Origin: Bacteroidales bacterium
GTDB taxonomy: Bacteria; Bacteroidota; Bacteroidia; Bacteroidales; Salinivirgaceae
Assembly (NCBI GenBank): GCA_012519055.1
Contig: JAAYQU010000042.1
Span: 1-60,859, forward strand
Reading direction: 5' to 3'
DNA: 60,859 nucleotides
Made by a program: the position numbers and the translations under genes. This document shows, one piece after another, positions 47,534 through 55,972 of the stretch (the first letter of the stretch is position 1; the number at the start of each line of letters is the position of its first letter). A model generated the notes under the pieces. It was not told the origin of the DNA, did not search any database, and saw only the letters and a list, made by a program, of their open reading frames with translations.

Positions 47534-48571
47534 ATGAAAACTACAAGAATTTTTATTTTTACACTGTTAGTGGGACTATTTCTACTCTTTGCAAATGGTT
47601 GTGAAAAAGTTGAAGGAGACGGAATAAACGGCAATAACATGAGCATACCCACATTATCAACAACGGAAATTACCAACATTACTCAAACCTCTGCAAATAG
47701 CGGTGGTAGCATTACTTCAGATGGTGGATCAGATGTAACAGCTCGTGGAGTGTGTTGGAGCACAAATCAAACTCCAACAATATCAGACAACATTACCACA
47801 GATGGAACAGGAGTAGGTATGTTTTCTAGTATATTAACTGATTTGTCGCCCAATACAACATACTACGTACGAGCATACGCAACAAATAGCAAGGGTACAG
47901 GTTATGGCAATACCTTAACTTTTACTACACAAGAACAAGATGAGAACAGTTTTACGGATCCCCGCGATGGTAACGTTTATAAATTCGTAACCATTGGTGA
48001 ACAGATTTGGATGGCAGAGAACTTAAAATATTTACCAAATGTAGTTGGTCCTGAGACATGGTCAGAAACAGAGCCATATTATTATGTTTATGACTATGAA
48101 GGCACAGATGTAACAGCAGCCAAAGTAACAGCCAATTATAACACCTACGGTGTATTGTATAATTGGATAGCAGCAGTCGACGGAACGACAGGTAGCGAAA
48201 CTAATCCAAGCGGAATTCAAGGTATTTGTCCCGCAGGTTGGCACTTGCCAAGTGATGCAGAGTGGACGCAATTAATCGATTATCTAGGTGGAGATTGGAT
48301 CGCCGGCGATAAGCTTAAAGAGGCAGGGACTACTCACTGGGAAAGTCCAAACGAAGGTGCAACCAATGAATCTGGCTTTACAGCCCTGCCAGGTGGGTAC
48401 TATGTAAACGGATTCGGTGCTATTGGAAGATTCGGTAATTGGTGGAGTGCTACAGAAGATCCTACTACGAATTCTGCATGGTACCGTGACATGCGCTGCT
48501 TCGAAAGCTCAGTCTATAGGAGCAATGTCGATAGAAGCTGGGGAATGTCTGTTCGTTGTATAAAGGATTAA
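47534..48571 (+). CDS. FISUMP-domain lipoprotein
   Basis: 345 residues. Lipobox ANGC (Cys23) follows a hydrophobic signal. An Fn3-like domain at ~45-132 (ITQTSANSGGSITSDGGSDV, RGVCWSTNQTPTI, SPNTTYYVRAYATNSKG) precedes a Fibrobacter-succinogenes-major-paralogous (TIGR02145) domain from ~138 to the end: DGNVYKFVTIGEQIWMAENL, YGVLYNWIAAV, GICPAGWHLPSDAEWTQL, FTALPGGYYVNGFG, NWWSATE, GMSVRCIKD. Such domains occur in many surface lipoproteins of Bacteroidota and Fibrobacterota, with adhesive or carbohydrate-binding roles suspected. Confidence 0.9.
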   Translation: MKTTRIFIFTLLVGLFLLFANGCEKVEGDGINGNNMSIPTLSTTEITNITQTSANSGGSITSDGGSDVTARGVCWSTNQTPTISDNITTDGTGVGMFSSILTDLSPNTTYYVRAYATNSKGTGYGNTLTFTTQEQDENSFTDPRDGNVYKFVTIGEQIWMAENLKYLPNVVGPETWSETEPYYYVYDYEGTDVTAAKVTANYNTYGVLYNWIAAVDGTTGSETNPSGIQGICPAGWHLPSDAEWTQLIDYLGGDWIAGDKLKEAGTTHWESPNEGATNESGFTALPGGYYVNGFGAIGRFGNWWSATEDPTTNSAWYRDMRCFESSVYRSNVDRSWGMSVRCIKD

Positions 48572-48694
48572 AATCTATTAAAAGGAGAAAGAGAAAAGTA
48601 ACAAGATAAAATTTAAACAATCAAGGCACAATATCCATTCATAAGCTTATTAAAAAATAGATTTCACCTATCACGCGCTTAGCGTTGTGATAAC

Positions 48695-48735
48695 AAAAAA
48701 ACGATTAGCGATTTTTTCCTCGCTAATCGTTTTTT
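48695..48735. terminator. Bidirectional rho-independent terminator
   Basis: AAAAAACGATTAGCGA and TCGCTAATCGTTTTTT form a long perfect stem with a loop of about nine bases, with A-run and T-run flanks. It serves the FISUMP gene on the plus strand and fabD on the minus strand. Confidence 0.92.
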
Positions 48736-48768
48736 ATATATTGGTAAAGAGATTAAAATGCTCTACAC

Positions 48769-49650
48769 CTATAGTGCCGCACTCATTACAACCACCTCTT
48801 TACTTACCTTCCCTATCAAACCTTGTAATACTGTGCCTGGTCCTACTTCGGTAAACTCTGTCATACCATCAGCAAGCATATTTTTAGAAATCTGCGTCCA
48901 ACGTACAGGCGAAGTTAGTTGAGCAATTAAATTCTTTTTGATTGTTTCTGGCTCAATGTGCGGTTTTGCATCAACGTTTTGATATACAGGTGCAATAGGC
49001 TTATTGAATACCGTATTGTTGATAGCCTCGGCTAGTTCAACTCGTGCCGGCTCCATCAATGGGCTGTGGAACGCTCCTCCAACTTTCAAAGGAAGTGCTC
49101 GCTTAGCTCCTGCTTCTTTTAGTTTTTCGCATGCAATTTCAATTCCTTTTATAGAACCTGAAATAACTAACTGCCCGGGACAGTTGTAGTTGGCAGGAAC
49201 AACAATCTCGTCAATTTTTTGACAAACCTCTTCTACGATGCTGTCGTCAAGTCCTAAGATAGCCGCCATGGTTGAAGGCTCTTTTTCACAAGCCTTTTGC
49301 ATTGCCAAAGCTCTTTTGTAAACTAACTTTAATCCGTCAGCAAACGAAAGTGCATTAACTGTCGTAAGTGCAGAAAACTCGCCTAAAGAGTGACCAGCAA
49401 CCATATCCGGATTAAATTTATTGCCTAATGCTTTCGCTAATATTACAGAATGTAGAAAAATAGCTGGTTGTGTTACCTTTGTTTGACGCAAATCCTCTTC
49501 GGTACCTGCAAACATCAAATCAGTAATTCTGAATCCCAATATCTCATTGGCTTGTTCAAACAAATCTTTGGCAATTGGCAAATTATCGTAAAGATCTTTG
49601 CCCATACCTACAAATTGTGCTCCCTGACCGGGAAATCCGTATGCTTTCAT
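48769..49650 (-). CDS. fabD: Malonyl-CoA:acyl-carrier-protein transacylase
   Basis: 293 residues. It transfers malonyl from CoA to ACP for fatty acid synthesis. The N-terminal block is FPGQGAQFVGMGKDL. The nucleophile Ser88 lies in GHSLGEFSAL and the catalytic His195 in GGAFHSPLM. QPAIFLHSV and ANYNCPGQLVISG match the family. The end, FTEVGPGTVLQGLIGKV, is canonical. It is monocistronic here, with no neighbouring fab genes, and is preceded by a TATTTTTG -7 element. Confidence 0.96.
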   Translation of the reverse strand: MKAYGFPGQGAQFVGMGKDLYDNLPIAKDLFEQANEILGFRITDLMFAGTEEDLRQTKVTQPAIFLHSVILAKALGNKFNPDMVAGHSLGEFSALTTVNALSFADGLKLVYKRALAMQKACEKEPSTMAAILGLDDSIVEEVCQKIDEIVVPANYNCPGQLVISGSIKGIEIACEKLKEAGAKRALPLKVGGAFHSPLMEPARVELAEAINNTVFNKPIAPVYQNVDAKPHIEPETIKKNLIAQLTSPVRWTQISKNMLADGMTEFTEVGPGTVLQGLIGKVSKEVVVMSAAL

Positions 49651-50014
49651 ATGTTTATAATTTTAATTACATGAAGTATAAATACCTTAATATCACGCCT
49701 TTGTGTAAAACAATACCGGTATATACACTTCAAAAGTTGATTAAATTTCTGTTTATTTCAAGACAAAAATACAATTTTATTAGCTTTTTAGCGCAATTAC
49801 AAATAAGTTATAAAACAGATAGGCAAAATATTATAAACTTAGATTTAAAGAATCAACTTGAATTAACCACTAATAACCTATTTCTATCACTAAAAAGTGC
49901 TTTAAATAAATCTTTTTTAACAGCAAAGCATCATTTTACCAAAAAAATATATACTTTAGCGCAAAATCGCCACTAATAACATGGTCAATACTCTCTAACA
50001 CTAAAACATAAGAT
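49651..50014. other. 364-bp divergent intergenic region
   Basis: It lies between fabD (minus) and the M14 peptidase gene (plus). It contains the fabD -7 element (49764-49771). Just upstream of the M14 gene, TACTTTAG near 49962 is a one-mismatch -7 candidate. A plus-strand frame from 49575 to 49976 is open but overlaps fabD in antisense and has no protein-like composition. No repeat or RNA gene is evident. Confidence 0.45.
49764..49771 (-). promoter_or_regulatory. Candidate -7 element (TATTTTTG) for fabD
   Basis: Perfect TAnnTTTG match on the minus strand, 113 nt before the fabD start. A minus-strand TTG lies about 22 nt further upstream. Confidence 0.42.
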
Positions 50015-51142
50015 ATGAAGGTTACTGCAAATTTTGATGGAGGAAACATTGAGGTAATAAAAGCCGAAACCCCTGAAAACATAGAGCTTGCTATCAGGCG
50101 AGACACTAAAAGTACATTTATGCAATGGTTCTATTTTCGTTTAGAGGGTGCACAAGGCTTCCCATGTAAAATATCAATTGTTAACGCCTCAGAAGTTAGC
50201 TATCCAGAAGGATGGACGGGCTACCGTGCAGTTGCTTCATACGACCTAAAAACATGGTTCAGAGTTCCTACATCTTTTGATGGGAAGGAACTACATATAA
50301 CACATATGCCCGAATACAACTCGGTTTATTATGCATATTTTGCACCATATTCGCACCAACGACATCTTGAGATGATCCATAAAGCCCAAACAAGCAAGCA
50401 GATGGTTCTTGAAAACCTGGGGCAAACCGTAGAGGGTCGCAATATCGATTTACTTGTGGCGGGCGAAATTGCCGATAGCAAACCAAAAATTTGGATTATT
50501 GGTCGCCAACACCCTGGCGAACCCATGGCTGAATGGTTTATGGAGGGGCTAATTGAAAGACTTTGTAATACAAACGATCCTGTTTCACGCACACTTTTGG
50601 ACCAAGCTATTTTTTATCTGATTCCAAATATCAACCCCGATGGCTCAATACATGGTAATTTGCGAACCAACGCAGCCGGACATAACTTAAACCGCGCCTG
50701 GCAAAATCCCGACCCCATAGAAACACCCGAAGTATATTACGTTCGTCAACGTATGATAGATACAGGTGTTGATATGTGTTTAGATATCCACGGTGATGAG
50801 GCTCTTCCCTACTGTTTTGCAACATCAAACGCTGGAATCCCCTCGTTTAGCAAACGTTTAGGCATGTTGGAAAAAGAGTTTACCGATATTTGGAAAAAAA
50901 CAAGTCCTGATTTTCAAACCGATAGAGGTTACGAAATAGATAAACCAGGGAAGGCAAAAATGGACATTTGTAGCAAATGGGTTGGCGAGAATTTCGACTG
51001 CCTATCATTGACAATTGAAATGCCATTTAAAGATAACAACAACCTACCCGATTCGACATACGGCTGGAGCCCCGAAAGAAGCAAATGCCTTGGAGCATCA
51101 GTCCTTAATGTAATATTGCAAATGGTTGATATATTGGTTTAA
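50015..51142 (+). CDS. M14 metallocarboxypeptidase of the cytosolic carboxypeptidase (AGBL/CCP) type
   Basis: 375 residues without a signal peptide, so it is cytosolic. An N-terminal beta-sandwich (~1-115; FMQWFYFRLEGAQGFPCKI, YRAVASYDLKTWFRVPTSFD) precedes the peptidase domain, the layout of bacterial and eukaryotic cytosolic carboxypeptidases. Zinc ligands are His166 and Glu169 in RQHPGEPMAEW and His259 in DIHGDE. Substrate-binding blocks are NINPDGSIHGNLRTN and AGHNLNRAW. The catalytic Glu335 lies in LTIEMPF. Family knowledge: eukaryotic members remove C-terminal Glu residues from tubulin and other proteins; bacterial substrates are mostly unknown. It lies 14 nt upstream of an E1/ThiF-like gene on the same strand, suggesting a shared operon. 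Confidence 0.92.
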   Translation: MKVTANFDGGNIEVIKAETPENIELAIRRDTKSTFMQWFYFRLEGAQGFPCKISIVNASEVSYPEGWTGYRAVASYDLKTWFRVPTSFDGKELHITHMPEYNSVYYAYFAPYSHQRHLEMIHKAQTSKQMVLENLGQTVEGRNIDLLVAGEIADSKPKIWIIGRQHPGEPMAEWFMEGLIERLCNTNDPVSRTLLDQAIFYLIPNINPDGSIHGNLRTNAAGHNLNRAWQNPDPIETPEVYYVRQRMIDTGVDMCLDIHGDEALPYCFATSNAGIPSFSKRLGMLEKEFTDIWKKTSPDFQTDRGYEIDKPGKAKMDICSKWVGENFDCLSLTIEMPFKDNNNLPDSTYGWSPERSKCLGASVLNVILQMVDILV

Positions 51143-51156
51143 TTCATTAATAACAA

Positions 51157-51747
51157 ATGCTTAGCACAGAAACTATAAAACGCAGGTTACGCGATAAAAA
51201 GGTGGGTATCGCAGGTAGTGGAGGATTAGGCTCAAACTGTGCTATGGCTTTAGCTCGTGCAGGTATTGGCCACTTAGTTTTAACCGATTTCGATGTTGTA
51301 GTAGAATCAAACCTTGAAGTTCAATACTATTTTAAGGATCAAATTGGACATAAAAAAGTGCTTGCATTAGCCGAAAATATTAAAAAAGTAAATCCACTAA
51401 TTAAAACCGAAACACACGACATTAAGTTAGACGAGAATTCGATTGTAACCATATTCCGTAATTGCGATGTTATTGTCGAAGCATTTAGTTTAGTTGAAAA
51501 CAAACAGATGCTTGTCGAAACGGTATTATTAAATTTTCCTGAAAAGTTTTTAATAATGAGTTCAGGGTTCGCAGGTTGGGGTAATAGCGATAGAATTTCA
51601 CAAGCTTCATATGAGAAATTGATTATTTGTGGTGATTTCATGACTGGAGCAAAAGAAACTCTACCGCCTTTAGCACCAAGGATTGGAATTGTTTCGAATA
51701 TGCAAGCAAATGCAGTACTTGAAATTTTACTTAATAAAAAACTATAG
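51157..51747 (+). CDS. ThiF/E1-like adenylyltransferase-fold protein with altered active site
   Basis: 196 residues, matching the short ThiF family-2 type. The nucleotide-binding glycine loop GIAGSGGLGSN (17-27) and acidic DFDVV (44-48) are intact. The usual NLNRQ motif reads NLEVQ (52-56), losing the ATP-contacting Arg. The usual EAFD reads EAFS (Ser111), losing the Mg/ATP-binding Asp. The C-terminal half fits the family (SSGFAGWGNS, LIICGDFMTGAKETLPPLAPRIGIVSNMQANAVLEILL). There is no zinc-binding Cys pair, and no ThiS or MoaD partner is in view. It may be an inactive or repurposed E1-like protein. The neighbouring M14 peptidase suggests a joint role. The family call is good; activity is doubtful. 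Confidence 0.85.
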   Translation: MLSTETIKRRLRDKKVGIAGSGGLGSNCAMALARAGIGHLVLTDFDVVVESNLEVQYYFKDQIGHKKVLALAENIKKVNPLIKTETHDIKLDENSIVTIFRNCDVIVEAFSLVENKQMLVETVLLNFPEKFLIMSSGFAGWGNSDRISQASYEKLIICGDFMTGAKETLPPLAPRIGIVSNMQANAVLEILLNKKL

Positions 51748-51776
51748 TTTATCAACTATTTGCAATAAGATAAACT

Positions 51777-51784
51777 TATATTTG
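51777..51784 (+). promoter_or_regulatory. Candidate -7 element (TATATTTG) for the FtsB-like gene
   Basis: Perfect TAnnTTTG match 51 nt upstream of the ATG at 51836. Confidence 0.42.
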
Positions 51785-51835
51785 ATCGTATTTTTCAAAT
51801 AAGAACACTATAACAATACGTGTAAATTAATAATC

Positions 51836-52135
51836 ATGAAGGGTCTGAAAAACTTTTACTTTAAGAGGTTACATAACAAATATGGGTTAACATTTATAGT
51901 ATTTCTAGTTTGGATGATTTTTTTTGATACTAACAATCTGATTGACAGGGTTGACAGTATCAAGCAACGGCGAAAATTAAAAAGTGATATTGAGTACTTT
52001 AAGCATAGAATAGAAACCGACTCTAAAAACCTTAAAGAGTTAAAAACTAATCCGGAAGTACTTGAAAAATTTGGGCGTGAGCAATACTTTATGAAAAAAG
52101 ACAACGAAGATATTTTTATAATCGTTAAAGATTAA
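51836..52135 (+). CDS. FtsB/DivIC-type septum formation initiator
   Basis: 99 residues with one N-terminal membrane helix (YGLTFIVFLVWMIFF) preceded by a basic cytoplasmic end. A coiled coil follows (~35-75; LIDRVDSIKQRRKLKSDIEY, FKHRIETDSKNLKELKT), then the conserved LEKFGREQYFMKKDNEDIFII, which matches the Bacteroidota septum formation initiator family. It is a bitopic division protein that joins FtsL and FtsQ in the divisome. It lies 88 nt after the E1-like gene, with its own -7 element, and ends 1 nt before a convergent gene stop. Confidence 0.92.
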   Translation: MKGLKNFYFKRLHNKYGLTFIVFLVWMIFFDTNNLIDRVDSIKQRRKLKSDIEYFKHRIETDSKNLKELKTNPEVLEKFGREQYFMKKDNEDIFIIVKD

Positions 52136-52136
52136 A

Positions 52137-53054
52137 TCATTTTGTCAAGCGCTGTATAAGACTTTTACGACTCACAAAACTATAATGCTCTGTTTCCGCA
52201 CCAAATCCCAAGTTACGTTGCGCTATTGACTTTATGCTCGAACCTGTAAAATCAAATATTTTATCCTCTCCTGCATATCTTTCAATTACTCGGTCGATCA
52301 ACAAAAACATTGCACGCTTATCTTTTCCAACGTTACTTGATGAACATAAAAGGAAATAAACACGTTGAGCATCAACAATAAACAAGCCTGCTGAAATTAA
52401 CTCACTATTATCGTAAACTCCAACAAGCAAAGGTTGGGAATAAATTTTTGCATTGTATATCAAATTCTTAATACTATTGGCATTTGGTTTTGTAAACTCT
52501 TGAGGCTCCCATTGGCACTGAAACTCAAGAAATTGCTCAACGTCTAAATTATAATCTATTGTCAATTCAAATTCGTTTGCAGCTTGAATATTGCGCCGTG
52601 TATTTCTATTGTAGTCGGCAGCTATATGGTCGTAACCTTTAATCAATCTCAAAATTTGATTATCCCGCTGAACGACATCATAATTACTGTTTATCTCAGT
52701 TTTAAAAGTGCCATTTAAGTGAACAATCAAGTATTTACTCGGAATAGAGCTTAAAAATTCAAACACTATTTCAGGCGAACAGCCATCTTTCCCTATTACC
52801 CCAAGTCGCTGAGTAATAAATGGTTGATAAATATATTGTATAAAATACTTTTCCCTAAAAGGCAAAGGCATTACAAACTCATAATCACCATAAATCAGGG
52901 CATTCCAATTAGAGTTGGTCATTGAATCAAGATACCACGATTCAAAATAAATCAACCGCATGAAACTTTGACGAACCAAAGAGTCCCATTTAACAACGTC
53001 TATTTGCGACCGTTTGTAAAATTCAATTTTTTTATCTCCATTTCCCTTTCTCAT
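52137..53054 (-). CDS. GNAT/FemAB-like acyltransferase family protein
   Basis: 305 residues from the ATG at 53054 (a TTG at 53075 is the longer option). The layout matches Bacteroidota proteins annotated as GNAT-fold: an N-terminal half around YFESWYLDSMTNSNWNALI with FVMPLPFREKYFIQYIYQP, and a C-terminal half with LIYNAKIYSQPLLVGVYDNS, ISAGLFIVDAQRVYFLLCSS and FDFTGSSIKSIAQRNLGFGA, which looks like a FemAB-type acyl-acceptor fold. No acceptor can be named. It lies 39 nt after the plug gene on the same strand. Confidence 0.72.
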   Translation of the reverse strand: MRKGNGDKKIEFYKRSQIDVVKWDSLVRQSFMRLIYFESWYLDSMTNSNWNALIYGDYEFVMPLPFREKYFIQYIYQPFITQRLGVIGKDGCSPEIVFEFLSSIPSKYLIVHLNGTFKTEINSNYDVVQRDNQILRLIKGYDHIAADYNRNTRRNIQAANEFELTIDYNLDVEQFLEFQCQWEPQEFTKPNANSIKNLIYNAKIYSQPLLVGVYDNSELISAGLFIVDAQRVYFLLCSSSNVGKDKRAMFLLIDRVIERYAGEDKIFDFTGSSIKSIAQRNLGFGAETEHYSFVSRKSLIQRLTK

Positions 53055-53093
53055 AAAAACATAATTAGCTTCCAACCCACTCCAATATAAACT

Positions 53094-54407
53094 CTACGGA
53101 AAAGAGGTAACCACCGTGAAACCTAACAAATCGTCAAGTCCTGTGGAGCGATCGCAATTGTAAACAAAAATCAAATAGTCGTTACTTGTTTGGGCAAAAT
53201 TCCCCTCAATCTTGCTGAAATCAATGCGATTGTCGTAATTATAAACAAAAGCATAACAATAGTCATGAAATCCCTGTTTTAGCAACATTTTATTTTCGTA
53301 AAGCGCCTTATCAACATCGTAAACCATTAAATTCCAAGGATTTAACGAATATCCCGTCAATGCACCATAAACATATACATTACCCTCTATCATCGGTAAC
53401 TCCGATTTTAGCGTAAAATAGGCATAAAAATAGTCAGCTTCAGTATTACTATTCCACGACCCAAACTTTTCGATATGGTTTTTACCGTTCATATCGTCTG
53501 AACTACGTGGCGGTGTATTGGTCCTAAACATATCGGTTGGCAACTGTACATGATCAACTCCACGTATCGTAACTAACTTTTCAACATCAGAGTAATTAGT
53601 ACTTAACTCTTTTAAATTCAAAGTTCTAAACTCGTTATTTGGACTTAACTCTTTTTCGTAAGTTATAATATTCCCCCTGACAAACAACGGGGAAATATCC
53701 GTAACCGCCCCATGCCAAATATAGTTGGGCACAACAACCACTTTCAAATCAGAAAAGACATCGCTAACCTGAACCCTTGAAATATCAATTGACAACTCAA
53801 GTTTTTGGTTGTTGTAATTCATACTACCGCCATGTATCATTCGAATATTTGCGTCAATAGAAATTTTATTGTCATAAACCGTGAAACGCCGCGATATCAC
53901 AACATCATCTGTGGAAGCATCAAAAACTTTAAGCAAAAAGTTACCCGTTCGTTTTATTTTGATGTCGTTGTTTGGAATCCTCAAAACGTAGTGACGATAC
54001 GGAATTGTAGTTGCTATCGACAACTCGTAGTCGTTCAAACTGTTATTAGCAAAACCATCTAAATAACTGTTTACATCGTTGTTTTGAACTTGCCAGTTTG
54101 CATCGTAATGCTCAATTGTATAATAATAATTGTGTTGCGTAGAGTCTATATCATCGAAATGCAACTCTAACGACGAACTGCCATTAATCGCGAGATTTGG
54201 ATATGTCATTGTACTTCCCGATAAGTAAGTTTGAACTGATTGAACATAAGGGACGTGTACTCGATTATTATTCAATGATGTCGCTTCCCATATTTTATCA
54301 ACAACCTCTTGCGATGGAAATAGTGGTTGAGAAAACGCCTGACCGTATGCAATAAAAAAAACAACAAAAAATAATTGCTTTTCAATTGAGTATAACTTCT
54401 TTTTCAT
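53094..54407 (-). CDS. T9SS plug-domain protein (DUF5103)
   Basis: 437 residues from the ATG at 54407; residues encoded upstream of it precede the true signal (KQLFFVVFFIAYGQAFSQ). Two beta-sandwich domains follow, matching the DUF5103 / type 9 secretion plug family: YPNLAINGSSSLELHFDDID, then the signature YYYTIEHYDANWQVQNNDVNSYLDGF, NSLNDYELSIATTIPYRHYV, and in the second half YAYFTLKSELPMIEGNVYVYGALTG and NRIDFSKIEGNFAQTSNDYLIF. Family knowledge: the plug occludes the SprA translocon channel of the T9SS on its periplasmic side. It fits the many T9SS cargo genes in this window. It is divergent from nqrA. Confidence 0.88.
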   Translation of the reverse strand: MKKKLYSIEKQLFFVVFFIAYGQAFSQPLFPSQEVVDKIWEATSLNNNRVHVPYVQSVQTYLSGSTMTYPNLAINGSSSLELHFDDIDSTQHNYYYTIEHYDANWQVQNNDVNSYLDGFANNSLNDYELSIATTIPYRHYVLRIPNNDIKIKRTGNFLLKVFDASTDDVVISRRFTVYDNKISIDANIRMIHGGSMNYNNQKLELSIDISRVQVSDVFSDLKVVVVPNYIWHGAVTDISPLFVRGNIITYEKELSPNNEFRTLNLKELSTNYSDVEKLVTIRGVDHVQLPTDMFRTNTPPRSSDDMNGKNHIEKFGSWNSNTEADYFYAYFTLKSELPMIEGNVYVYGALTGYSLNPWNLMVYDVDKALYENKMLLKQGFHDYCYAFVYNYDNRIDFSKIEGNFAQTSNDYLIFVYNCDRSTGLDDLLGFTVVTSFP

Positions 54408-54561
54408 TATACATATCTCATAATTACAATAAAAACCAATCAAAAAACGAATATACTAAGAAAGATATTATGTTTGACACATTTTTGAGCAACATATATT
54501 TTTGTCTTAATGACACTAAAATATAAATCAGAAATATAGAAATTATATATCTTATTTTACC

Positions 54562-54569
54562 TACATTTG
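54562..54569 (+). promoter_or_regulatory. Candidate -7 element (TACATTTG) for the nqr operon
   Basis: Perfect TAnnTTTG match 50 nt upstream of the nqrA ATG at 54620. The region upstream is A+T-rich; no clear -33 TTG was found. Confidence 0.48.
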
Positions 54570-54619
54570 CACGATTATTGAGATAAAAACCAAGCACAAA
54601 CAAATAACAAAAAAAACTA

Positions 54620-55972
54620 ATGTCAAAAGTAATAAAAATCCGCAAAGGGCTCGATATTCCTATAGTTGGAGAAGCCGACCGGAAAATTACAGATGTACCA
54701 AATTCTGAGACTTTTGCTATTAAACCTTTGGAATTTAAAGGATTAAGTCTAAAGCTCGTAGTAAAAATTGATGACGAGGTAAAAATCGGAACACCAATAT
54801 TACACGATAAAGCCAATCCCGACATTGTTATAACAGCACCAGTTTCTGGAAAGGTTACTGCTATAAATCGTGGAGAACGCCGCTCGTTATTGGAAGTAGT
54901 TATAAAATCTGACAAAACTAATAGCACTGTCGATTTTGAAAACATAAATCGTTCGTCGCTTGACAGAAAGTTAATAACTGAACACCTTTTAAAAACAGGA
55001 CTTTGGGCTTTTATAACACAACGTCCATTCGGACTTGTAGCGAATCCAGAAAACAGTCCACGCGATATTTTTATATCAACTTTTGATTCATCTCCACTTG
55101 CCCCCGATATCTCGTTTATAATTGAGCAAGACAAGCAAAGTTTTGCAGCAGGTGTAGAAATACTGCAACAATTAACTTCGGGCAAAGTTCATTTAGGTTT
55201 AAATGCGGATAAATCAAACGAAATGTTTGAAAATATCAAAAGTATCGAAAAACATTACTTTACGGGACCACATCCAGCAGGTAATGTTGGGATACAAATT
55301 CATCATATCGCTCCCATTATTAAGAATGACGATATTGTTTGGACTGTCAGACCACAAGATGTTCAAAATATAGGACGATATTTCAGCACAGGAAAACTTG
55401 ATTTCCAGCGCATTATAGCAATAACAGGTAGTGAAGTTATCAACCGAAGTTATGTAAAAACTACTGTTGGTGCTAATTTTGAGCCTTTACTAAAAAACAA
55501 CGTAAGTATGGATAAAAACTTGCGATATATTAGTGGTAATCCACTAACAGGCAGCAAAGAGGAAGCAACAAGTTTTCTCGGTTTTTATCATGATCAAATT
55601 ACCGTTATACCCGAAGGTGACGAATACGAGTTTATGGGCTGGGCTATGCCTCGGTTTAGTAAATATTCGGCTTCAAAAGCTTATTTCAGTTGGTTGTTCC
55701 CAAAACGTAAATACGTTATAGATGCAAATATAAACGGAGATGAACGAGCTTTTGTCGTTACCGGCGAATATGAGAAGTATCTGCCAATGAACATTTTACC
55801 CGTATATCTGCTTAAAGCCGTTATCACAAAAGATATTGACAAAATGGAGCAGTTGGGAATATACGAGGTTATTGAAGAAGATTTAGCGCTTTGCGAGTTT
55901 GCCTGTACCTCCAAAATTGAGGTACAAAAGACTCTACGAGAAGGAATTGAGTTTTTAATTAGTGAGTTATAA
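54620..55972 (+). CDS. nqrA: Na+-translocating NADH:quinone oxidoreductase subunit A
   Basis: 450 residues. It is the cytoplasmic, membrane-associated subunit of Na+-NQR that binds ubiquinone/menaquinone. The start KIRKGLDIPIVGEADR, ILHDKANPDIVITAPVSGKVTAINRGERRSL, the central FTGPHPAGNVGIQIHHIAPI and MPRFSKYSASKAYFSWLFP all match NqrA. It is the first gene of a six-gene operon in the canonical order A-F. Confidence 0.97.
   Translation: MSKVIKIRKGLDIPIVGEADRKITDVPNSETFAIKPLEFKGLSLKLVVKIDDEVKIGTPILHDKANPDIVITAPVSGKVTAINRGERRSLLEVVIKSDKTNSTVDFENINRSSLDRKLITEHLLKTGLWAFITQRPFGLVANPENSPRDIFISTFDSSPLAPDISFIIEQDKQSFAAGVEILQQLTSGKVHLGLNADKSNEMFENIKSIEKHYFTGPHPAGNVGIQIHHIAPIIKNDDIVWTVRPQDVQNIGRYFSTGKLDFQRIIAITGSEVINRSYVKTTVGANFEPLLKNNVSMDKNLRYISGNPLTGSKEEATSFLGFYHDQITVIPEGDEYEFMGWAMPRFSKYSASKAYFSWLFPKRKYVIDANINGDERAFVVTGEYEKYLPMNILPVYLLKAVITKDIDKMEQLGIYEVIEEDLALCEFACTSKIEVQKTLREGIEFLISEL

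What the first reader, a model, noticed from the sequence alone, without database searches (positions are those of the whole stretch)
51157..51747. E1/ThiF-like protein lacking two expected catalytic residues
The protein keeps the glycine-rich nucleotide loop and overall ThiF family-2 layout. The NLNRQ motif has become NLEVQ (Arg to Val at residue 55) and the EAFD motif has become EAFS (Asp to Ser at residue 111). These two positions bind the ATP phosphates and Mg in MoeB and ThiF. No ThiS/MoaD-like carrier gene is in the window. It could be a pseudoenzyme that binds a carrier or nucleotide without adenylating it, or an E1 variant with rewired chemistry.
Basis: partly seen in the sequence, partly recalled or inferred. 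Interest (0 to 1): 0.6.

Follow-up and report, generated by a model that had tools for sequence, protein, structure and literature searches.

The report
Carrier-less, catalytically broken ThiF-like E1 homologue
A Bacteroidales genome carries an intact gene for a protein-activating enzyme that has lost two of its key catalytic amino acids and its usual small partner protein, so it looks like a relict or 'pseudo' enzyme left over from a tungsten-enzyme cofactor pathway.

Summary
ORF 51157-51747 (196 aa) passes the ThiF cut-offs NF006395 and TIGR02354, but has Val at the MoeB Arg73 position and Ser at the Asp130 position; the Gly41 and Lys86 equivalents are kept. Among 96 ThiF-bearing genomes in an even draw of 295 from its order, it alone lacks the Arg; only it and one relative lack the Asp. 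Of 34 near-invariant columns it breaks three, two of them catalytic.

The thiamine frame is not supported. In the order this ThiF co-occurs with AFOR_N-type aldehyde oxidoreductases (86 of 96 versus 30 of 199), usually beside a ThiS-like -GG gene. All five family relatives keep that thiS; here it is missing, and the genome has no ThiS, ThiC, MoaC, MoaE or AFOR_N match over cut-off; its ThiG match is a nitronate monooxygenase.

Best reading: a folded, non-adenylating pseudo-E1, a relict of a tungsten-enzyme ThiF-ThiS pair that lost its carrier. Decay and retention for a non-catalytic role cannot be separated. Four relatives lack the Asp but keep thiS.

The parts
51157..51747 (+). ThiF-like (E1 superfamily) protein, 196 aa, predicted non-adenylating
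   Evidence: NF006395 236.3 bits (cut 159), TIGR02354 180.6 (cut 152.2); model pLDDT 94.3; nearest folds TcdA, MoeB, ThiF
51310..51324 (+). N-L-E-V-Q (family NLNRQ): N54E and R55V; R55 = MoeB Arg73 / ThiF Arg70
   Evidence: ThiF numbering from PMC13139853
51478..51489 (+). E-A-F-S (family EAFD): D111S; D111 = MoeB Asp130 / ThiF Asp127
   Evidence: ThiF numbering from PMC13139853
51214..51231 (+). Glycine-rich nucleotide loop G20-S-G-G-L-G25, kept (G23 = MoeB Gly41)
51355..51357 (+). K67 = MoeB Lys86, kept
51748..51835 (+). 88-bp spacer; in all five family relatives a ThiS-like -GG gene follows thiF here; no thiS and no residual similarity in the window
   Evidence: relatives; local alignment to the G001 and G002 spacers no better than shuffles: 247 and 185 of 300 shuffles as high
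50015..51142 (+). M14 carboxypeptidase-like gene directly upstream (14-bp gap); same place in both same-genus relatives
   Evidence: PF18027 and PF00246
51836..52135 (+). DivIC/FtsB-like gene downstream, a syntenic anchor
   Evidence: PF04977

Best explanation
The protein descends from a ThiF of the kind that activates a small ThiS-like sulfur carrier for tungsten-oxidoreductase (WOR/AOR) cofactor synthesis. In this lineage the oxidoreductase, the molybdopterin genes and also thiS were lost, and the adenylation site was freed: the Mg/carboxylate Asp became Ser and the phosphate-binding Arg became Val. What remains is a folded E1-like domain, perhaps still able to hold a nucleotide through its glycine loop and Lys67, that does not adenylate a carrier. 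It is now an inactive relict, probably transcribed with the upstream M14 gene, under reduced constraint. Shown: residue losses, thiS absence, absence of the pathway genes searched for, co-occurrence of relatives with AOR. Inferred: lack of activity, the carrier's role in tungsten cofactor synthesis, descent and order of losses, cotranscription, relaxed constraint.
For: R55 lost only here (1 of 96) and D111 in 2 of 96. Mutating the equivalent residues in yeast Tcd2 (R128A, D188A) lowered the ct6A/t6A ratio by 91% and to 0.65% of wild type (PMC13139853, passages). ThiF-AOR co-occurrence 86/10/30/169, odds ratio 48, not corrected for kinship. An AOR (median 719 aa) or a fragment of one is near thiF in 57 of 80 named loci, and in 43 of the 56 that hold over 3.5 kb upstream; 16 of 80 also hold MoaA-, MoeA-, ModE- or transporter-like genes. 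thiS sits next to thiF in 5 of 5 family relatives but not here, with M14 and DivIC in place. Own genome (100% complete by the tool): ThiS (TIGR01683), ThiC, MoaC, MoaE and AFOR_N 0 matches. More query-only than sister-only replacements in ThiF (23 vs 13), against 21 vs 31 for M14 (Fisher p 0.05).
Against: The ORF is intact, and 31 of 34 near-invariant columns are kept (51 of 57 at the 95% level). ThiF differs from its nearest relative at 34% of residues while the silent-site distance could not be estimated (saturated), so constraint acted for most of the branch. The rate test on ThiF alone is not significant (23 vs 13, p 0.13), and DivIC leans the same way (11 vs 8, p 0.65). The Arg and Asn54 codons differ from those of the nearest relative at 3 and 2 bases, which suggests the site was free for long while the rest was held. 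Four other family members also lack the Asp yet keep thiS, and eight genomes of other families without an AFOR_N match keep both residues (four of the eight are only 68-79% complete), so loss of AOR does not by itself erode the site. 13 of 93 order genomes show no -GG gene within 900 bp, so a missing neighbour thiS alone is not unique.
Confidence: 0.5

Rival explanations
1. Maintained pseudo-E1: the protein is kept by selection for a non-catalytic job, such as binding a nucleotide or a partner protein, as inactive E1 subunits (SAE1, APPBP1; recalled) or yeast Tcd1 do.
For: Intact ORF, high-confidence fold, and only the two catalytic residues plus one conservative change (V176I) are altered among 34 columns conserved at 99%. 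Tcd1 has Thr at the Arg position and works as partner of Tcd2 (PMC13139853, passages). Asp-less relatives in the second genus are 76-83% identical with silent-site distance not estimable (saturated), so a form without Asp at 111 can be maintained.
Against: No candidate partner: the only other ThiF over the Pfam cut-off is TcdA-like, whose sequence reads NINRQ and IDAID, i.e. a complete site of its own. At the 95% level three further conserved columns are changed (N54E, G135S, E164G). Absence of stops is weak evidence: simulated neutral ORFs stay open in 66% of runs at 10 substitutions and 29% at 30.
Confidence: 0.3
2. Still an active adenylyltransferase, acting on another substrate with a rearranged ATP site.
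For: Glycine loop, D44 and Lys67 are kept. ThiF-fold enzymes with other substrates are close in fold (TcdA, MccB, HcgE).
Against: The Asp is kept in ThiF, MoeB, TcdA and the yeast Tcds (PMC13139853, passages). No neighbouring Arg or Asp replaces those lost. The immediate neighbours (M14, DivIC) are those of its same-genus relatives, not a new pathway.
Confidence: 0.1
3. A canonical thiamine ThiF of unusual sequence.
For: Passes TIGR02354 and NF006395, both labelled thiamine/ThiS adenylyltransferase.
Against: No ThiS and no ThiC. The ThiG match in this genome is a nitronate monooxygenase. A member of the same models, L048, sits beside an AOR gene.
Confidence: 0.03
4. Assembly or sequencing artefact.
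For: The window is from a draft assembly of 53 contigs; no second assembly of the species could be searched here.
Against: The three codons (54, 55, 111) differ from the nearest relative at six bases in all, in frame, with intact flanks and the same gene order as G002 over six genes, thiS apart.
Confidence: 0.04

Closest known systems
WOR-linked ThiF with the ThiS-like WorX (beside CsWOR87 of Cetobacterium somerae, PMC13328260; AOR-MoaD-MoeB neighbourhoods, PMC1779556)
   Same: Same type of gene pair in the relatives: thiF followed by a small -GG carrier, often next to an AOR/WOR gene
   Different: Here no carrier, no AOR, and two ATP-site residues lost. That the relatives' carrier is the same family as WorX is inferred from position and annotation, not tested by sequence
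E. coli ThiF and MoeB
   Same: Fold (VIA-align Z 22.2 to ThiF and 22.4 to ATP-bound MoeB), glycine loop, Lys83/Lys86 equivalent
   Different: Shorter protein (196 vs about 250 aa); Arg70/73 and Asp127/130 positions replaced; no ThiS or MoaD found in the genome
Yeast Tcd1 (partner of Tcd2)
   Same: ThiF fold (9hmp, Z 23.2) with the phosphate-binding Arg replaced (Thr in Tcd1; PMC13139853)
   Different: Tcd1 keeps the Asp, has a C-terminal domain and a known partner; none is known here
TcdA
   Same: Best structural match (Z 23.9)
   Different: Sequence score far below the TcdA cut-off (48 vs 304 bits); the genome has a separate TcdA-like gene

Membership tests
ThiF family 2 (TIGR02354 / NF006395) | Score over the curated cut-off | tested here: met
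   180.6 vs 152.2 and 236.3 vs 159 bits
ThiF family 2 (TIGR02354 / NF006395) | Catalytic Arg (NLNRQ) and Asp (EAFD) | tested here: not met
   V55 and S111; Arg kept in 95 and Asp in 94 of 96 order genomes
ThiF family 2 (TIGR02354 / NF006395) | ThiS partner and thiamine genes | tested here: not met
   ThiS; ThiC; the ThiG match is a nitronate monooxygenase. Other thi genes were not searched
ThiF family 2 (TIGR02354 / NF006395) | Adenylates the C-terminus of a carrier | not testable with these tools
   Needs biochemistry
WOR-linked ThiF/WorX pair | Descent from AOR-associated thiF | tested here: inconclusive
   Most close relatives with enough flank are beside an AOR (43 of 56) and co-occur with it; the same-genus trio groups 99/97. 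No thiamine-operon ThiF was put in the tree
WOR-linked ThiF/WorX pair | ThiS-like carrier gene adjacent | tested here: not met
   Absent here; present in 5 of 5 family relatives, 75 of 80 named loci, 80 of 93 order genomes
WOR-linked ThiF/WorX pair | AOR/WOR in the genome | tested here: not met
   AFOR_N 0 in G000; 1 of 6 family genomes
MoeB | Score over TIGR02355 cut-off | tested here: not met
   71.9 vs 376.55 bits; MoaE 0 of 6 family genomes
TcdA | Score over NF011696 cut-off | tested here: not met
   48.2 vs 304 bits
E1 / ThiF fold superfamily | ThiF Rossmann fold | tested here: met
   PF00899 97.1 bits (cut 28.1); pLDDT 94.3; Z 22-24 to TcdA, MoeB, ThiF

The most novel reading that the evidence does not exclude
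The second genus keeps thiS with its Gly-Gly end and a ThiF without Asp111 under constraint. In the window's genome the E1-like protein has gone one step further and works without any carrier, as a free-standing bacterial pseudo-E1.
Probability: 0.22. Interest if true: 0.65.

Novelty: new variant of a known kind. Interest (0 to 1): 0.4.

Why it matters
It catches an E1-carrier pair in different states of adenylation-site loss within one bacterial family: full site with thiS, no Asp111 with thiS, and neither Arg nor Asp without thiS. This is the kind of series from which inactive E1 subunits could have arisen. It also warns that the annotation 'thiamine biosynthesis ThiF / ThiS adenylyltransferase' is given in Bacteroidales to proteins that go with tungsten-type aldehyde oxidoreductases.

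Tried and rejected
Thiamine role: rejected. A second canonical ThiF elsewhere in the genome: PF00899 gave four places, two over the cut-off, this ORF and a TcdA-like gene. Displaced Arg or Asp inside the ORF: not seen in the alignment; in the second genus an Asp sits one residue later (EAIGDA) and could compensate, not so here. That loss of AOR alone erodes the site: not supported, since eight genomes of other families without an AFOR_N match keep Arg and Asp. Residual thiS in the spacer: none. M14 peptidase as trimmer of a carrier tail: no support, as the relatives' carriers already end in -GG and no M14-like cluster was seen by eye among those recurring in 4 or more of the 80 loci. dN/dS: silent-site distances not estimable or above 2 for ThiF, so ratios mean little. 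Rfam: no match in 48500-55000. Papers: a search for Salinivirga, ThiF, ThiS-like, E1-like and pseudoenzyme (at least two per paper) found 37 papers, 10 listed; none of the listed titles or abstract starts describes this case; nothing wider is claimed. Papers were seen as listings or as passages found by term, none in full.

Full report
What is there. The ORF 51157-51747 (+) encodes 196 aa. It scores over the cut-offs of NF006395, TIGR02354 and PF00899, but far below those of MoeB and TcdA. Aligned to MoeB, Gly41 and Lys86 are matched by G23 and K67, while Arg73 and Asp130 are matched by V55 and S111. These are the four MoeB positions that PMC12355090 (passages) lists as corresponding to residues of the UBA1 active site. 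PMC13139853 (passages) reports that mutating the equivalent residues of yeast Tcd2 lowers the product ratio by 91% (Arg) and to 0.65% (Asp).

How rare it is. In the five family relatives Arg is kept 5 of 5; the Asp position is D (G002), N (G001) and G (G003-G005, where the next residue is D). In the order, 96 of 295 evenly drawn genomes have this ThiF at E <= 1e-30. Arg is kept in 95 and Asp in 94 of these 96: 93 were parsed automatically; G018, G134 and G057 were read by eye. A caveat is that one of the two patterns used to find those loci fixes residue 55 to R or V. Of 34 columns at least 99% conserved in 77 loci outside the family, the window protein breaks three (R55V, D111S, V176I). A left-out reference breaks 0.12 on average and at most 2 (0 of 77 reach 3). 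At the 95% level it breaks 6 of 57 (references at most 4), at 90% 6 of 71 (4 of 77 references reach that). The second-genus proteins break three of the 34 as well (N52S or C, F110I, D111G).

The partner and the pathway. In all five relatives a 67-aa ThiS-like protein ending in Gly-Gly is encoded just after thiF; the three scanned (G001, G002, G003) pass the TIGR01683 cut-off, and all five pass PF02597. In the window thiF and the DivIC gene are 88 bp apart, with no thiS and no residual similarity. Gene order otherwise matches G002 over M14, thiF, DivIC and the next three genes, up to NqrA; G001's short contig shows M14, thiF, thiS, DivIC. Genome-wide, no ThiS was found. In the six family genomes ThiC is 0 of 6, MoaC 0 of 6, MoaE 0 of 6, and AFOR_N 1 of 6 (G002 only). 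PF05690 (ThiG) matches were partial in all six; the one in the window's genome is a nitronate monooxygenase, the others were not identified.

What the relatives do. ThiF and AFOR_N co-occur: 86 genomes have both, 10 only ThiF, 30 only AOR, 169 neither (from; no correction for kinship). Among the 80 named loci an AOR (52) or a fragment of one (5) is held near thiF, i.e. 57 of 80, and 43 of the 56 with over 3.5 kb upstream; 16 of 80 hold a MoeA-like (9), MoaA-like (4), ModE-like (11) or transporter-like gene. Representatives of the MoaA, MoeA, solute-binding and permease clusters were confirmed by Pfam, one locus (L102) also has MoaC, and the ModE and ModC labels are mine by eye. PMC13328260 (passages) describes a ThiS-like WorX near some tungsten oxidoreductases, with a thiF beside it in one case, and says WorX's exact function is unknown. 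PMC1779556 (passages) describes AOR-MoaD-MoeB neighbourhoods. So the family is best seen as carrier-activating enzymes for tungsten-type cofactor synthesis (inference), not thiamine enzymes.

State of the protein. AlphaFold2 gives pLDDT 94.3 and pTM 0.91. The nearest folds are TcdA (Z 23.9, rmsd 2.4, 191 aligned), MoeB with ATP (Z 22.4, 2.1, 176) and ThiF with ThiS (Z 22.2, 2.1, 176). The query's tip branch is the longest of its genus (0.64 vs 0.35 and 0.47) but not of the tree of 33 rows. Query-only changes are 23 and sister-only changes 13 (p 0.13); for M14 21 and 31, for DivIC 11 and 8 (ThiF against M14, Fisher p 0.05). In the 188-column alignment the ThiF counts are 21 and 12. The R55 codon differs from the nearest relative's at three bases, the N54 codon at two and the 111 codon at one. 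Simulated neutral drift leaves the ORF open in 66% of runs after 10 substitutions and 29% after 30, so an open frame says little about the recent past.

Reading. Loss of carrier adenylation is likely (my estimate about 0.8, inference). Whether the protein is a decaying relict (0.5) or a maintained pseudo-E1 (0.3) is not settled. Asp111 is missing in five of the six family genomes, four of which keep thiS, so the site can change while the carrier is still there. Whether the Asp was lost once or several times is not resolved (the grouping inside the genus is 98/71, and the family is not one clade in this tree).

Limits. No second assembly of the species could be searched. The five relatives are 85-99% complete, and some order genomes less, so single absences there are weak. 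Activity, cotranscription and metal use are not shown.

Noticed in passing
order sample of 295 genomes (G handles): AFOR_N is found in 116 of 295 genomes but MoaE (PF02391) in only 19; of the 86 genomes with both ThiF and AOR, three (G027, G236, G297) have MoaE. Which protein does the molybdopterin-synthase step in the others is open; a divergent MoaE below the Pfam model is possible.
   Followed up: partly
L010, L008, L009 (G003, G004, G005): The second genus of the family has ThiF with Asn52 and Asp111 both replaced (S or C, and G) and an Asp one residue later, with a -GG ThiS-like gene after it, but no AFOR_N, MoaC, MoaE or ThiC match: an E1-carrier pair with no known pathway.
   Followed up: partly
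L155:8717-10597 (G002): The only AFOR_N match of the family, in G002, best fits the archaeal GAPOR model (367 bits, cut-off 1300), unlike the ~720-aa AOR linked to thiF elsewhere; G002 has no MoaC or MoaE match (92% complete).
   Followed up: partly
window 50015-51142: Cytosolic-carboxypeptidase-like M14 gene 14 bp upstream of thiF, in the same place in both same-genus relatives but not seen beside thiF in the second genus.
   Followed up: partly
NCBIfam NF006395 and TIGR02354: Models named for thiamine ThiF pick up an AOR-linked Bacteroidales protein well over cut-off (L048), so the automatic annotation 'thiamine biosynthesis' is probably misleading for this group.
   Followed up: partly
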